The notes under the pieces: generated by a model | Databases searched by the model: none | The model's input: only the letters and a program-made list of their open reading frames with translations | Told to the model about the DNA's origin: nothing | Shown: piece by piece, positions 55,586 to 60,851 of the stretch | How the letters are laid out: each line of letters opens with the position of its first letter | How positions within the stretch are numbered: the first letter of the stretch is position 1 | From: Mycolicibacterium nivoides | GTDB taxonomy: Bacteria > Actinomycetota > Actinomycetes > Mycobacteriales > Mycobacteriaceae | Assembly (NCBI RefSeq): GCF_003855255.1 | Contig: NZ_CP034072.1 | Coordinates: forward strand, 2,007,238-2,071,237 | Direction of reading: 5' to 3' | DNA length: 64,000 nt | Program-made: the position numbers and the translations under genes

Positions 55586-57073
55586 ATGGCCAAATCTGCG
55601 ACTTCCGACCCGAGCTCCTCCCGATTTCCCACCCTGACCAACCAGCTCTACCAACTTGCCAGCGGTGCAGTCACTTCTGACGAACTGGTACGTCAGTCCT
55701 TGCATGCCATCACCGCGAGCCAGTCCACCCTCAACGCGTTCCGCGTCGTACTGACCGAGCAGGCGCTGGCCGACGCCGCCAAGGCCGACACGGCTCGCGC
55801 GGCCGGCAAACAACTCCCGCTGCTGGGAATCCCGATCGCGGTCAAGGACGATGTCGACGTCGCCGGGGTGCCCACCCGGTTCGGCACCGACGGCTCCACC
55901 CGCGTCGCCTCCGCTGACGCCGAAGTGGTGCGCCGCCTGAAGGCCGCCGGCGCGGTGATCGTCGGCAAGACCAACACCTGCGAACTCGGGCAGTGGCCGT
56001 TCACCGGCGGTCCGGGCTTCGGGCACACTCGTAACCCCTGGTCACGCAAGCACAGCCCGGGTGGGTCCTCGGGTGGCAGCGCCGCGGCCGTCGCCGCAGG
56101 CCTGGTGACCGCGGCCATCGGATCCGACGGTGCGGGCAGCGTCCGCATCCCCGCGGCGTGGACGCACCTGGTCGGCATCAAGCCGCAGCGCGGACGCATC
56201 TCCACCTGGCCGCTGCCCGAGGCATTCAACGGCATCACGGTCAACGGAGTGCTGGCCCGCACCGTCACCGATGCGGCCCTGGTGCTCGACGCCGCATCGG
56301 GTAACGCCGAGGGCGATCTCCACAAGCCGGCACCGATCCAAGCCGCCGAACATGTTGCCCGCGCGCCCGGACCGCTACGGGTGGCCATGTCGACGAAGTT
56401 CCCCTTCACCGGTTTCCCTGCCACGCTGCACCCCGAGATCCGCGACGCGCTGCAGGGCATGGCCGATCAACTCGGGCAGCTGGGTCACACCGTGGTGGCC
56501 AAAGACCCCAACTACAGCCTGCGGATGTCATGGGACTTCCTGGCCCGCTCCACCGCGGGCCTGCTGGACTGGACCGACCGGCTCGGCGACGTGTCCTATG
56601 ACGAACGAACTCTGGCCAACATGAGGATCGGTCGGCTGTTGTCCCAGCACATCCTCCGCAAAGCCCGGGCACACGAGGCCGCCGTACAGCGGCGGATGTC
56701 CTGGATCTTCAACCTCGTCGACGTCATCATCGCGCCGACCACCGCCCAACCTCCGCCGCTCACACACGAATTCGACCGGCGCGGGTGGTCTGCCACCGAA
56801 CGCAGCTCGATCGCCGCCTGCCCGGTGACCTGGCCGTGGAACCTGCTGGGCTGGCCATCGATCAATGTGCCCGCCGGCTTCACCTCTGGCGGGCTGCCGA
56901 TCGGCATCCAGCTGATGGGGCCGGCCGACAGTGAGCCACTGCTGATCTCACTGGCCGCCGAGTTGGAGGCGATCACCGGTTGGGCAGCCAAGCAACCCGA
57001 GGTCTGGTGGAATACCCCGTCGCAGACCGACGCGTCACAGGCCGCCGCCGCGATCAACTCGCTTGACGGGTAG
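55586..57073 (+). CDS. amiA2: amidase (AmiA2-like)
   Basis: The 495-residue amidase-signature enzyme has the Ser-cisSer-Lys triad: Lys87 (AVKDDVD), the cis-Ser in PGGSSGGSA (161-162) and the nucleophile Ser185 in GAGSVRIPA. It hydrolyses an amide or acts in amidotransfer. The ATG at 55586 is chosen because the protein starts there (MAKSATSDPSS); the long open frame upstream is antisense to recO. It is M. tuberculosis AmiA2 (Rv2363) by order: recO / amiA2 / era. Confidence 0.9.
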   Translation: MAKSATSDPSSSRFPTLTNQLYQLASGAVTSDELVRQSLHAITASQSTLNAFRVVLTEQALADAAKADTARAAGKQLPLLGIPIAVKDDVDVAGVPTRFGTDGSTRVASADAEVVRRLKAAGAVIVGKTNTCELGQWPFTGGPGFGHTRNPWSRKHSPGGSSGGSAAAVAAGLVTAAIGSDGAGSVRIPAAWTHLVGIKPQRGRISTWPLPEAFNGITVNGVLARTVTDAALVLDAASGNAEGDLHKPAPIQAAEHVARAPGPLRVAMSTKFPFTGFPATLHPEIRDALQGMADQLGQLGHTVVAKDPNYSLRMSWDFLARSTAGLLDWTDRLGDVSYDERTLANMRIGRLLSQHILRKARAHEAAVQRRMSWIFNLVDVIIAPTTAQPPPLTHEFDRRGWSATERSSIAACPVTWPWNLLGWPSINVPAGFTSGGLPIGIQLMGPADSEPLLISLAAELEAITGWAAKQPEVWWNTPSQTDASQAAAAINSLDG

Positions 57074-57160: not shown

Positions 57161-57220
57161 CGAATCCACGGCGTGGGGGCCGCGAACAAATTGTTCAAGC
57201 TGTCGGGAGGGTCAAGAGGC

Positions 57221-57265
57221 GTGCACACTGATGCATCCATGGGCGATACGCGGGCCTCTGAATGA
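57221..57265 (+). CDS. 14-codon leader ORF before the espA-like gene
   Basis: A GTG with GGGAGGG about nine bases upstream opens a 14-codon frame (VHTDASMGDTRASE). Its TGA overlaps the ATG of the espA-like gene as ATGA. The espA-like ATG itself has no good RBS, so the leader may deliver ribosomes by termination-reinitiation. Whether it encodes a functional peptide is unknown. Confidence 0.4.
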   Translation: MHTDASMGDTRASE

Positions 57266-58578
57266 CGGGGTCATCGTCATCGGAAGGTGAGGGCACCAGA
57301 GCGCCCAGCAAGGGACCCAGCAAGTCCGGCATAGCGTCTACCGCCTGGAGCACCTACGGCAACCTCAAGAAACTCATGGAAGGCGATCCGCAGGGCGCGG
57401 TCGGCTTGTTCGGCGACGCCGGCAAATGGGCGCAGGCGCTCGCCCCCGCCGCGACCGCCACACCGGTGATCAAAGGCGGCTTGTGGACCCTGACGGCAGT
57501 CAGCGTCACCATGGGCGAGGGAAGCCCGGACGGTGGCGGCGACTTCAGCGACGGCGCCAAACTGTTCCAGTCCAACGGGAAGAGCCTCGAAGGCGCCTAC
57601 CCCACCGAGACGTGGTCCGGTTCAGCTTCTGACGCCTATATGTCGCAGAACTCGCACCAGATCCAGCGTGCGACAACCATGCTGGCAGCCGACAACGACA
57701 TCGTTCGGATCCTGTCTACCCAGGCGGGCCAGGTGGACCAGGCCCGCAGGGAAGTCGACTGGGCGTCAAAAGGTTTGGCCGCAATGATTCCGGTGGCGCT
57801 GGCGTTGGAAGCCACCGTGCTGGGAGCTCCGGAGTCGATTGCACTCCAGGTCGCTGCGGTGGCTGTAGCTCTCACAGCCGCCGGTCTCACGGCAAACAAT
57901 CTGCGCAACTACGCGCAAGACAATGCCGCCCAGATACGGGAAGCCACGACCAAGTACCGCGAAGCGGGCGCGGTGAGCCCGTCAGGGACAGGTTCGCCTA
58001 CCTCACCATCCGGCTCGGGCGGCGGCAACGGCCCCGGGTCCGGGTCCGGAAAACCGAACAATCCGTCCGGACAGGACACTCCTGGTACCCAGAGCGAACC
58101 GGCAGGTAACGGAAGTTCGGGTAGCCAGACCAGGGGCGGCGGTTCAGGTGCCGGCGGCGGATCGAGTGCCGGCGCCGGCGGCGGCTCCCGGAGCGGTGGC
58201 GGATCGGGCAGTGGGAGCGGTGGCGGAGCTGCGGCATCGATGCCGAGCACGACCGGCATGTCCAGCGGGGCCGCAAATGCCGCGAGCAGTGGCGCCGGGA
58301 TGGGCGGCATGCCATCGCTACCTCAAATGGGTGGCGGTTCCGGTGGCGGTGGCGCCGGAACGCTCGGCAGTCTCGCGGGCGCCGCCGGCCAGATCGTCGA
58401 CACCGTCATGCAGGCAGTGGAGCAGTCCGATCAGCAAGACCCGAACACGCAGAATGGCGGCCAGCCCGGTGCGGCGGCAGGTGGCGAATCGCAGGCCGGT
58501 CGCGCACCGATCAATGTATCGGTTGGCGCCGACACCGCGAACCATGCTGCGCCGCAGCGCCTCACAACCGAACTGTAA
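57262..58578 (+). CDS. EspA/EspE-like ESX secretion-associated protein
   Basis: The 438-residue protein has an EspA-like layout: N-terminal leader, a helix-turn with W118-S-G in ETWSGSASDAYMSQNSHQIQ (matching EspA's WLG helical hairpin), a helix of small and hydrophobic residues (180-215, MIPVALALEATVLGA) and a long Gly/Ser/Pro-rich disordered tail (240-400). It opens a cassette followed by EspC-like and EspD-like genes in the same order as espA-espC-espD. Function would be ESX-dependent secretion or support of ESX-1; substrates are unverified. It lacks a strong RBS; see the leader ORF. Confidence 0.75.
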   Translation: MTGSSSSEGEGTRAPSKGPSKSGIASTAWSTYGNLKKLMEGDPQGAVGLFGDAGKWAQALAPAATATPVIKGGLWTLTAVSVTMGEGSPDGGGDFSDGAKLFQSNGKSLEGAYPTETWSGSASDAYMSQNSHQIQRATTMLAADNDIVRILSTQAGQVDQARREVDWASKGLAAMIPVALALEATVLGAPESIALQVAAVAVALTAAGLTANNLRNYAQDNAAQIREATTKYREAGAVSPSGTGSPTSPSGSGGGNGPGSGSGKPNNPSGQDTPGTQSEPAGNGSSGSQTRGGGSGAGGGSSAGAGGGSRSGGGSGSGSGGGAAASMPSTTGMSSGAANAASSGAGMGGMPSLPQMGGGSGGGGAGTLGSLAGAAGQIVDTVMQAVEQSDQQDPNTQNGGQPGAAAGGESQAGRAPINVSVGADTANHAAPQRLTTEL

Positions 58579-58596
58579 CCGCGAAAGGAGCACTTC

Positions 58597-58911
58597 TTGT
58601 CTGACGAATTGAACGTTCTCACTTCGGATCTCCGAGACATGTCGACCACGCATGACGCGGCCGCGGCCGGATTCTCCGCGGCGGGCGATACGACGTCGTA
58701 TGTGGAATGGAAGGTGCTGGCAACGCATGGTCCGATCTGTTGGTCGTCGCAGCAAGCCTTGTGCGAAGCGAACGAGGCCCGCAAATCCGCATCCGAGGCG
58801 ATGATGAAGAAGTCCAACGAACTGGCCGGAAACCTGACCACGGCGGCCTCGCAGTACGACCAGACCGACGCACAAGAATCCGGCAACCTCGGCCGCACCA
58901 TGCACTCCTGA
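58597..58911 (+). CDS. EspC-like ESX secretion-associated protein
   Basis: The 104-residue helical-hairpin protein has an EspC-like core: THGPIC (residues 43-48; EspC has THGPYC) and the ESX export signal YDQTD (87-91), a YxxxD motif, after the second helix. The start is TTG, decided by AAAGGAG seven bases upstream. It sits 18 bases behind the espA-like gene and probably pairs with it for export, as EspC does with EspA. Cys48 and Cys56 are present in the hairpin. Confidence 0.82.
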   Translation: MSDELNVLTSDLRDMSTTHDAAAAGFSAAGDTTSYVEWKVLATHGPICWSSQQALCEANEARKSASEAMMKKSNELAGNLTTAASQYDQTDAQESGNLGRTMHS

Positions 58912-58915
58912 TCAC

Positions 58916-59482
58916 ATGACCGATCACACCTGGGACGATGACGGTCCCGAAGACGAACAGTTCCCGAGCGACCTCGATGCGCTGGGTTTCGACGACCACC
59001 AACACGGCCATGACGACCACGAAGACGACTGGTCCGGGCTCGACGGGTTCACTGCCGACGAAGCCCCGAGCGAGAGCTTCAGCGACCCAACGGGTGATGC
59101 GCCTGCGCCGACGATGCCCGGGGACGATGACTCAGACGATGAGTCGTCGGGGCCGGTCACGTTCGGGATCACCAACCCGGCCGGGACGATCACGGCGCAA
59201 GCCACCATCTCGGGTGCGATCAATCGGATCGAGTTGTCCTCGGCCACAACCTCGATGACCGAATCGGACCTTGCGCGCGACATCATGTCCACCGCCAAGC
59301 TGGCCAACATCCAGGCCCGGGCAATTCAACGCGCGATGGTGCAGAGCCTGCTCATGCATCAGGGCATGGACCAGGACGTGGCCGCGCAGTTCATCGACGA
59401 CATCAGCGATCTACCCACACCGGCACAGTCCGAGGCTGCCCAAGCCGAGGCAATGGCAGAGTATCTGCGAAGCGGACGTTGA
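58916..59482 (+). CDS. EspD-like protein (YbaB/EbfC-like fold)
   Basis: The 188-residue protein has an acidic, His-rich N-terminal 70 residues (DDHQHGHDDHEDD) followed by a domain with VTFGITNPAGTITAQATISG and INRIELSSATTSMTESDLARDIM (cores ITNPAGTI and SMTESDLA), closely patterned on EspD of M. tuberculosis (FTVTNPPRTV, WMSESQLA). In M. tuberculosis EspD stabilises EspA/EspC. The gene is four bases behind the espC-like gene. The His/Asp run could bind metal. Confidence 0.8.
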   Translation: MTDHTWDDDGPEDEQFPSDLDALGFDDHQHGHDDHEDDWSGLDGFTADEAPSESFSDPTGDAPAPTMPGDDDSDDESSGPVTFGITNPAGTITAQATISGAINRIELSSATTSMTESDLARDIMSTAKLANIQARAIQRAMVQSLLMHQGMDQDVAAQFIDDISDLPTPAQSEAAQAEAMAEYLRSGR

Positions 59483-59548
59483 CCGTCAGCAGTTCGTCGG
59501 CCAGTTAGGATTTCGCAGGCTATCGAATAGGGCAAGGGGAATGCCGCA

Positions 59549-59929
59549 ATGAGCTATCCGGATCCGTACCACCCCCAACAGCAACCTCCGCCGGGGCAAT
59601 ATCCGCCCGCCCCGCCTGGATCCCATGGATTCGGTTATCCGTCCAACGTGTCACCCAACGGTGGTTACCCGCCCGCTCAGCCCTACGGCGCCCAGCCACA
59701 ACCCCCGTATTATCCGCCTCCGCCTGTCCCCCCGCAGCCAGAGGCCGAGCGAGACAACGGCAACTCGCGGGGTTGGCGGATGATGGACGCGCTGTTGGTT
59801 CTCGCCAGCGGCTCCGGGGAACGTGGCGGTACCGCACGCGACCGTGTCAAGACCCAGCTGATTATCTTCGGCGTCGCTATGCTCGGGTTCGCGATTCTGA
59901 TGCTAGTTGTCGTGTTGATCGGCAAATAG
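59549..59929 (+). CDS. proline-rich protein with one C-terminal membrane helix
   Basis: The 126-residue protein has a Pro/Tyr/Gln-rich cytosolic N-terminal half (PHQQ-type repeats of QPP and YPP), a hydrophilic middle (SGERGGTARDRVKTQ) and one C-terminal membrane helix IIFGVAMLGFAILMLVVVLI. Tail-anchored topology is likely. AAGGGGA eight bases before the ATG supports the start. It is 66 bases behind the espD-like gene and convergent with era, so it seems to be the fourth cassette gene. I know no family for it. Confidence 0.7.
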   Translation: MSYPDPYHPQQQPPPGQYPPAPPGSHGFGYPSNVSPNGGYPPAQPYGAQPQPPYYPPPPVPPQPEAERDNGNSRGWRMMDALLVLASGSGERGGTARDRVKTQLIIFGVAMLGFAILMLVVVLIGK

Positions 59930-59951: not shown

Positions 59952-60851
59952 TCAGAAGCCCAGCCGGCCGAGCTGCTTGGGATCGCGCTGCCAGTTCTTG
60001 GCGATCTTGACCCGAAGGTCGAGATAAACCTTTGTGCCGAGCAGCTTTTCGATCTGGGTGCGGGCGGCGGTGCCGACCTCACGCAGCCGGGCGCCGCCCT
60101 TACCGATCACGATGCCCTTCTGGCTGTCGCGCTCGACGTACAGGATGGCGTGCACATCGATGAGATCGTCACGTCCCTCACGCTCTTCGACCTCTTCGAT
60201 GACCACAGCCAGTGAATGCGGCAGTTCGTCGCGCACACCTTCCAGGGCAGCCTCGCGGATGAGCTCGGCCATCAGTACTTCCTCGGGCTCATCAGTGAGC
60301 TCGCCGTCGGGGTAATACGCAGGCCCCGGTGGCAGTTTCGAGACGAGGACTTCGGTGAGAACGTCGAGTTGCTCGTTGGCGGTGGCCGAGACCGGCACGA
60401 TGTCGGCATCGGGTCCCAGGAGTTCGCTGACGGCCATCAGTTGTTCGGCGACCCGGTCCTTGGGCACCTTGTCGATCTTGGTGACGACAGCGATCAGCGT
60501 GGTCTTGGGCGCGACCGCGCGGATCTGCTGATAGATCCAGCGGTCACCGGGACCGATGCGCTCATCGGCGGGGATGCACAGACCGATCACGTCCACCTCG
60601 GAGTAGGTGTCCTTGACCAGGTCGTTGAGCCGCTGCCCGAGCAGGGTGCGCGGACGGTGCAGCCCCGGGGTGTCGACCAGGATGATCTGGAAGTCCTCAC
60701 GATGCACGATGCCGCGGATGGTGTGCCGGGTGGTCTGCGGCCGGTTCGAGGTGATCGCGACCTTCTGACCCACCAGCGCGTTGGTCAGCGTCGACTTGCC
60801 GGTGTTGGGCCGGCCGACGAAACAGACGAAGCCGGAACGGAACTCAGTCAT
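59952..60851 (-). CDS. era: GTPase Era
   Basis: The 299-residue protein has the GTPase domain (G1 GRPNTGKST at 13-21, DTPG, TKID) followed by a C-terminal KH domain (GKGGARLREVG). It binds 16S rRNA and assists 30S assembly. It is the end of the phoH-ybeY-CNNM-cdd-era run, as in Rv2368c-Rv2364c. AGGGGAG precedes the ATG. It is convergent with the esp-like cassette. Confidence 0.96.
   Translation of the reverse strand: MTEFRSGFVCFVGRPNTGKSTLTNALVGQKVAITSNRPQTTRHTIRGIVHREDFQIILVDTPGLHRPRTLLGQRLNDLVKDTYSEVDVIGLCIPADERIGPGDRWIYQQIRAVAPKTTLIAVVTKIDKVPKDRVAEQLMAVSELLGPDADIVPVSATANEQLDVLTEVLVSKLPPGPAYYPDGELTDEPEEVLMAELIREAALEGVRDELPHSLAVVIEEVEEREGRDDLIDVHAILYVERDSQKGIVIGKGGARLREVGTAARTQIEKLLGTKVYLDLRVKIAKNWQRDPKQLGRLGF

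What the first reader, a model, noticed from the sequence alone, without database searches (positions are those of the whole stretch)
57221..59929. espA-espC-espD-like cassette inserted between amiA2 and era
Seen: an EspA-like protein with WSG hairpin, an EspC-like protein with THGPIC and a YDQTD export signal, and an EspD-like protein, in the M. tuberculosis order espA-espC-espD, but in the conserved recO-amiA2-era neighbourhood (Rv2363-Rv2364c in M. tuberculosis). It appears to be an accessory ESX-1 substrate set.
Basis: partly seen in the sequence, partly recalled or inferred. Interest (0 to 1): 0.8.

Follow-up and report, generated by a model that had tools for sequence, protein, structure and literature searches.

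The report
Off-site espACD-like secretion gene cassette
Some fast-growing mycobacteria carry, away from their main type VII secretion locus, a compact three-gene set that looks like a pair of secreted proteins plus their helper; it is a real, distinct branch of a known gene family, and it may serve the ESX-1 secretion system.

Summary
Window 57262-59482 encodes an EspA/EspE-family protein (PF18879), an EspC-family protein (PF10824) and an EspD/EspH-like protein with a predicted YbaB-like fold, in the order espA-espC-espD, between convergent amiA2 and era. Two corrections: 57221 opens a 14-codon leader ORF overlapping the espA start, present at 9 of 9 loci with the cassette at this site; the fourth ORF, 59549-59929, is a separate neighbour. 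In a 396-genome genus sample 19 genomes have the espA-like gene. With M. senegalense added, 9 of 20 have it between amiA2 and era, 11 of 20 some 4 kb away between phoH and rsmE. The 10 such sets put in a tree form one branch (97.7/100), apart from the window genome's ESX-1-locus copies and 15 sets of three other genomes. ESX-1-class EccCb1 is present in 17 of 19; one exception has an ESX-1 deletion, the other another ESX cluster there. Most likely: an EspA-EspC-type substrate pair plus chaperone, exported by ESX-1; export is inferred. An espACD-resembling operon in M. fortuitum is in print (PMC8217490). New member of a known kind.

The parts
57205..57211 (+). Shine-Dalgarno-like gggaggg in front of the leader ORF
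   Evidence: Present at 9 of 9 loci with the cassette between amiA2 and era, 8-9 nt before the GTG
57221..57265 (+). Leader ORF of 14 codons (GTG...TGA); its TGA overlaps the espA ATG
   Evidence: Length 14 codons in 9 of 9 site-A loci; pooled pN/pS 0.68, weak for selection on the peptide; no conserved counterpart in the 6 of 11 site-B loci that could be read
57262..58578 (+). EspA/EspE-like protein, 438 aa; helical N-terminal domain with WSG, Gly/Ser-rich tail
   Evidence: PF18879 E=2.2e-20; 22-row alignment
58597..58911 (+). EspC/EspF-like protein, 104 aa, TTG start; THGPIC turn and YDQTD (YxxxD) signal
   Evidence: PF10824 E=7e-24; HG and YxxxD in 24 of 24 rows of relatives
58916..59482 (+). 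EspD/EspH-like protein, 188 aa; acidic, low-confidence N-terminus, YbaB-like C-terminal half
   Evidence: Matches own EspH-like gene E=4.2e-12; model with 10-residue pLDDT means of 87-97 over residues 81-188; Foldseek YbaB 1j8b prob 1.00, TMt 0.64, E=0.028
59549..59929 (+). Separate neighbour (ORF4): Pro-rich N-terminus and one hydrophobic C-terminal stretch, 126 aa; not part of the cassette
   Evidence: No Pfam or NCBIfam hit; found at the amiA2-era junction without the cassette in G021, G049, G350
55592..57073 (+). amiA2 (amidase), upstream flank
   Evidence: PF01425 E=3.1e-115; gene name recalled
59952..60851 (-). era (GTPase), convergent downstream flank
   Evidence: MMR_HSR1 and KH_2 domains; gene name recalled

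Best explanation
A three-gene Esp substrate-chaperone cassette of the espACD / espEF-espH kind. The EspA-like protein (WSG turn) and the EspC-like protein (HG turn, YxxxD signal) pair in the cytosol. The EspD-like protein, with a YbaB-like fold, stabilises the pair before export. The pair is exported through ESX-1, whose genes lie elsewhere in the same chromosome (contig position 6.57 Mb against 2.06 Mb). EspA translation is probably coupled to a 14-codon leader ORF. Shown here: homology, motifs, order, open reading frames, conserved locus, distinct branch, leader ORF. Inferred: pairing, chaperoning, export by ESX-1, coupling.
For: PF18879 and PF10824 above cut-off; EspD-like match to the own EspH-like gene and YbaB-like fold. 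Passages of PMC6107294: EspH binds EspE, EspD stabilises EspA/EspC, and the authors propose YbaB-like EspH/EspD as dedicated chaperones. WxG in 22 of 22, YxxxD in 24 of 24. Gene gaps of 18 and 4 bp. The own genome has an ESX-1 locus with espE, F, G, H, eccA, B, Ca, Cb, esxB, esxA and espI-like genes (names by position and recall) and an EccD. 17 of 19 cassette genomes have ESX-1-class EccCb1, one of them (G335) as a fragment. In the 297-genome sample 11 of 13 cassette genomes against 139 of 284 others have it (Fisher p=0.011, not corrected for kinship). EspA-family matches as a whole go with ESX-1: 140 of 160 genomes with such a match have it, 10 of 137 without. Pairwise dN/dS of the three genes in the phoH-rsmE clade is 0.03-0.34.
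Against: No secretion, interaction or expression data. G149 and G204 keep open cassette genes without ESX-1. 20 of 160 genomes with an EspA-family match lack ESX-1-class EccCb1, though some assemblies are incomplete and that search scored only four candidates per genome. Foldseek E-values for the EspD-like model are weak (best 0.022, a mitoribosomal protein; YbaB 0.028; none below 0.001). The EspA fold prediction failed (pLDDT 36.9).
Confidence: 0.75

Rival explanations
1. The cassette encodes a substrate pair of another ESX system (ESX-3, ESX-4 or a further cluster with two EccD genes), not of ESX-1.
For: G149 and G204 keep open cassette genes without ESX-1. Both share with the window genome (near 4.28 Mb) a further ESX cluster: each of its two EccD genes forms a 100/100 clade of just these three genomes. 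Of the 10 distinct genomes (G000, G149, G204, G341, G350) have a second EccC at E below 1e-118; that the G341 and G350 ones belong to the same cluster was not tested.
Against: 17 of 19 cassette genomes have ESX-1, whereas 5 of the 10 genomes lack such a second EccC. G149 lost ESX-1 by a deletion that left a 59-aa espG1 stub 91.5% identical to its relative, so the loss looks recent.
Confidence: 0.12
2. In the mucogenicum-like clade the cassette has taken over the role of EspE-EspF for ESX-1 instead of being accessory (not exclusive of the best explanation).
For: The one ESX-1 locus of that clade read here (G206) has EspG1, EspH, EccA, EccB, EccCa, EccCb, PPE, EsxB, EsxA and EspI matches but no EspE/EspF-type gene. 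PMC6917791 (passages) reports espE and espF missing in that clade and says espC appears to be missing; an M. mucogenicum EspC-family protein of this kind is on record (P0074, 66%).
Against: G206 and G223 each have one further EspA-like match (30 and 32%). EspH is kept at the ESX-1 locus. Only one locus was read; that G206 belongs to the M. mucogenicum clade is inferred from EspC identity. It does not apply to the window genome, which has its own EspE- and EspF-like genes.
Confidence: 0.3
3. A decaying duplicate without function.
For: Several paralogous sets exist in the genome.
Against: Open reading frames and conserved motifs; dN/dS well below 1 (phoH-rsmE clade only); leader ORF in 9 of 9 site-A loci.
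Confidence: 0.04

Closest known systems
espACD operon (M. tuberculosis, M. marinum; from papers and recall)
   Same: Gene order, protein families, YxxxD signal, YbaB-like third gene, place away from the ESX-1 locus
   Different: Neighbourhood between amiA2 and era, or phoH and rsmE; separate branch from the sets of three presumed slow growers; leader ORF in front of espA at site A. No direct comparison with M. tuberculosis proteins was made.
espE-espF-espG1-espH of the ESX-1 locus
   Same: EspA/E, EspC/F and EspD/H types
   Different: No espG between the genes; the own genome's EspE-, EspF- and EspH-like proteins are 33, 35 and 32% identical to the cassette's
espACD-resembling distal operon of M. 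fortuitum and strain TNTM28 (PMC8217490, passages)
   Same: Three genes in espACD order; middle gene a reciprocal best hit of EspC; other two without significant orthology
   Different: Its neighbourhood is not given in the passages seen, so it may be this cassette, the phoH-rsmE one, or another set
YbaB/EbfC family
   Same: Fold of the C-terminal half of the EspD-like protein
   Different: Long acidic N-terminus; no Pfam hit of the window protein to that family; its relatives in the own genome hit it only below cut-off

Membership tests
EspA/EspE family (PF18879) | Profile match above gathering score | tested here: met
   73.2 bits against 27
EspA/EspE family (PF18879) | WxG turn | tested here: met
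   W118 and G120 invariant in 22 of 22
EspC family (PF10824) | Profile match above gathering score and YxxxD/E signal | tested here: met
   84.6 bits against 23.5; YDQTD in the window, YxxxD in 24 of 24 rows of relatives
EspD/EspH chaperones | Sequence relation to EspH/EspD | tested here: met
   Own EspH-like gene in the ESX-1 locus E=4.2e-12, 32%
EspD/EspH chaperones | YbaB-like fold | tested here: met
   pLDDT means 87-97 over residues 81-188; YbaB and YbaB-like structures with prob 0.87-1.00, but E only 0.028-0.50
EspD/EspH chaperones | Stabilises its substrate pair | not testable with these tools
   Needs an experiment
espACD operon of M. tuberculosis type | Order espA-espC-espD on one strand with short gaps | tested here: met
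   Gaps 18 and 4 bp
espACD operon of M. tuberculosis type | Orthology of all three genes | tested here: inconclusive
ESX-1 substrates | Occurs with ESX-1 | tested here: inconclusive
   17 of 19 with, 2 of 19 without
ESX-1 substrates | Export lost without ESX-1 | not testable with these tools
   Needs a secretome

The most novel reading that the evidence does not exclude
A third, long-lived Esp module of fast growers, held at one of two fixed chromosomal sites a few kilobases apart, that supplies ESX-1 with a substrate pair and in the mucogenicum-like clade has replaced EspE-EspF altogether; at the amiA2-era site its first gene is translated by coupling to a 14-codon leader.
Probability: 0.25. 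Interest if true: 0.6.

Novelty: new member of a known kind. Interest (0 to 1): 0.42.

Why it matters
If ESX-1 can draw on exchangeable substrate-chaperone cassettes placed elsewhere in the chromosome, gene lists based on the M. tuberculosis layout miss them. One paper (PMC6917791, passages) says espC appears to be missing from the M. mucogenicum clade, while an EspC-family protein close to this one is on record for M. mucogenicum (P0074). G149, with an ESX-1 deletion and open cassette genes, makes the question 'which machine exports this pair' directly testable.

Tried and rejected
Rejected: ORF4 as a fourth cassette gene. Rejected: 57221 as the espA start; it is in another frame and opens the leader ORF. 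Not kept: that the tandem second cassette of G204 and the G049/G350 cassettes are one lineage; support is weak (EspA 46, EspC 59; 65.2/76 for a different arrangement). The promoter scan found no sigma-70-like site between 56900 and 60100; a TA[CG]GCT hexamer upstream in 9 of 9 rows (by eye) is not claimed as a promoter.

Failed or faulty: EspA structure prediction, pLDDT 36.9. The EccD trees (minus-strand loci not turned; three rows, L051, L073 and L081, were wrong reading frames) are replaced. In some searches the EspD row of the first G204 cassette is the second cassette's EspD; no statement rests on it. In one search the G049 EspA row was out of frame; one search replaces it. In one search several EspD rows are partial (from the BLAST match start on). 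PDB sequence searches of the three proteins gave nothing better than E=0.029, 0.44 and no match at E<=1. NCBIfam gave nothing above cut-off for four proteins.
Full report
WHAT IS THERE. Four ORFs follow one another on the + strand between amiA2 (55592-57073) and the convergent era (59952-60851, - strand). Three belong together: 57262-58578 (438 aa, PF18879 EspA_EspE, E=2.2e-20), 58597-58911 (104 aa, PF10824 EspC, E=7e-24) and 58916-59482 (188 aa, no Pfam family above cut-off). The gaps are 18 and 4 bp, with an aaaggag in front of the TTG start of the second gene. The third protein matches the own genome's EspH-like gene in the ESX-1 locus (E=4.2e-12), the espD-like gene close to that locus (E=4.0e-8) and a lone gene at 5.61 Mb (E=1.1e-13). 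Its 34-row alignment gave a model with 10-residue pLDDT means of 87-97 over residues 81-188; residues 10-74 are below 50. Foldseek's best hits are a mitoribosomal protein (E=0.022) and YbaB of H. influenzae (1j8b, prob 1.00, TM 0.64 by target length, E=0.028), with E. coli YbaB, HP0035 and Rv3716c further down; no E-value is below 0.001. The EspA model failed.

PARALOGUES IN THE SAME GENOME. The genome (6,905,961 bases, one contig) has other EspA-like matches at 6567481, 5424847 and 6584814 and weaker ones at 3771091 and 4117401; EspC-like matches at 6567153, 6584105 and 5425494 and a weak one at 6573284; EspD-like matches at 5613044, 6582681 and 6566522. The ESX-1 locus runs from an espE-like gene at 6584442-6586130 through espF, espG, espH, eccA, eccB, eccCa, eccCb, PE, PPE, esxB and esxA to an espI-like gene (names by position and recall), followed by an EccD. 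A second espA-C-D-like set lies at 6566498-6568422 behind that EccD, with EspB (PF21856, PF18625) and a YbaB-family gene further on.

WHERE IT OCCURS. A search of 396 genomes of the genus with the EspA N-terminal domain at E<=1e-35 gave 19 genomes. M. senegalense, found by name, adds one. Between amiA2 and era (site A): the window genome, G273, G119, G177, G341, G124, G141, G193 and M. senegalense, 9 of 20; the eight others are 75-82% identical to the window in the EspA domain. Between phoH and rsmE (site B): G334, G206, G223, G382, G335, G149, G157, G204, G325, G350 and G049, 11 of 20, 45-53% identical. All three genes were seen in 19 of 20; the contig of G335 ends at the espA-like gene. Equal contig lengths link several to names: G273 M. 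septicum, G177 M. peregrinum, G141 M. porcinum, G341 sp. DL99, G193 sp. GA-1841, G119 sp. CBMA 247, G149 sp. CBMA 226, G382 sp. lyk4-40-TYG-92, G325 sp. OTB74. G204 has two cassettes in tandem at site B. Of 12 cassette-free genomes looked at, chosen mostly for a close EccCb1, 6 have the amiA2 match ending within about 170 bp of era, 1 (G021) has ORF4 alone there and 5 hold other ORFs, so site A is a variable spot. In the window genome site B holds a 259-aa proline-rich ORF instead.

ORF4. This proline-rich protein with one hydrophobic stretch stands at site A without the cassette in G021, G049 and G350, and lies beyond hrcA in G149, G334 and G382. It is a neighbour, not a part.

RELATIONSHIP. 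In a tree of joined EspA, EspC and EspD proteins of 28 sets, the 10 site-A and site-B sets included (3 of 9 site-A genomes, 6 of 11 site-B genomes, G204 with both its sets) form one branch (97.7/100); the site-A sets are sister to the mucogenicum-like site-B sets (99.9/100), and the G049/G350 sets lie outside these (corrected). The 15 sets of G235, G237 and G277 and the own ESX-1-locus sets fall elsewhere. That those three genomes are slow growers is presumed, not checked. In the species tree of four flanking proteins G049 and G350 fall with the site-A genomes, split 100/100 from the other site-B genomes, so the cassette history is not simply that of the species: loss of paralogues or transfer is needed. 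G235, G237 and G277 carry three, two and five further complete espA-C-D sets by the local profiles, so such cassettes are a repeatedly multiplied kind.

LINK TO ESX-1. Among 297 genomes, EspA-family matches (160) and ESX-1-class EccCb1 (150) coincide in 140, with 20 and 10 on one side only (lists taken; those searches scored nine and four candidates per genome, so some matches may be missed). For the cassette: 11 of 13 in that sample, Fisher p=0.011 without correction for kinship; with the six further genomes it is 17 of 19, one of them (G335) by an 86% fragment. M. senegalense was not tested. The two exceptions were read. G149: whiB6, a regulator gene and a 434-aa ORF are followed by a 59-aa stub of espG1 and then ptsH (name recalled), so the rest of ESX-1 is deleted within one contig. 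G204: beside whiB6 lies another ESX cluster (EccB 32%, EccA 40% to the own ESX-1 proteins). Neither has an EccD in the ESX-1 clade, which holds seven other cassette genomes and is split 100/100 from the rest. Both share a further ESX cluster with the window genome (two EccD clades, 100/100 each), which speaks for the rival reading. In both the cassette genes are open and pairwise dN/dS is of the same order as in relatives with ESX-1 (EspA 0.11-0.29 for pairs with G149 or G204; 0.03-0.34 over all pairs and genes); this cannot separate the time after the loss.

MUCOGENICUM-LIKE CLADE. P0074 (M. mucogenicum) and P0072 (M. aubagnense) are EspC proteins 66 and 65% identical to the window's, like most site-B copies (61-68% without G049 and G350). 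That these genomes belong to one clade is inferred from this. Passages of PMC6917791 report that clade to lack espE and espF, to have espA and espD paralogues, and say that espC appears to be missing. The ESX-1 locus of G206, read here, has an EspH but no EspA/E- or EspC/F-type gene (the one weak EspC-profile hit is the EsxB gene). The cassette may therefore supply that pair, though G206 has one more EspA-like match elsewhere.

LEADER ORF. At 9 of 9 site-A loci a gggaggg is followed after 8-9 nt by a GTG-started ORF of exactly 14 codons whose TGA overlaps the espA start (ATGA or GTGA); the pattern occurs once in the whole window, both strands. In the window the 20 nt before the espA start show no Shine-Dalgarno sequence by eye; the GA-1841 locus has an aggga there. 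Pooled pN/pS is 0.68. At site B the espA start region could be read in 6 of 11 loci (G334, G206, G223, G382, G149, G325) and no conserved counterpart was seen, only an unrelated 17-codon ORF in G223.

LITERATURE. PMC8217490 (passages) already reports a distal three-gene operon resembling espACD in strain TNTM28 and M. fortuitum, not in M. abscessus or M. smegmatis, with an EspC orthologue; its neighbourhood is not told in the passages. PMC6107294 (passages) proposes EspH and EspD as YbaB-like chaperones. PMC13203967 (passages) says that EspC and EspF interact with EccA. The listings of eight searches show no title or abstract start about a cassette between amiA2 and era or phoH and rsmE; papers of most subscription journals are not held, and the full texts of the other listed papers were not read.

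Noticed in passing
57221-57265: 14-codon leader ORF overlapping the espA start, present at 9 of 9 site-A loci.
   Followed up: partly
L151 6756-10397 (G149, contig length of Mycolicibacterium sp. CBMA 226): ESX-1 locus deleted between a 59-aa espG1 stub and a ptsH-like gene.
   Followed up: partly
L153/L154 (G204): Another ESX cluster sits beside whiB6 where G206 has ESX-1.
   Followed up: no
own genome, about 4.28 Mb (L049, L051): A further ESX cluster with two EccD genes, shared with G149 and G204; the genome has six EccD matches over cut-off.
   Followed up: partly
L034 3538-5460, L043 6435-8357: phoH match broken at residue 171/172 by about 1.1 kb in two genomes, intein-like.
   Followed up: no
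L016 16498-18422: A second espA-C-D-like set beside the own ESX-1 eccD gene.
   Followed up: partly
L119-L143 (G235, G237, G277): Several espA-C-D-like sets per genome in three unnamed 6.1-6.5 Mb genomes.
   Followed up: partly
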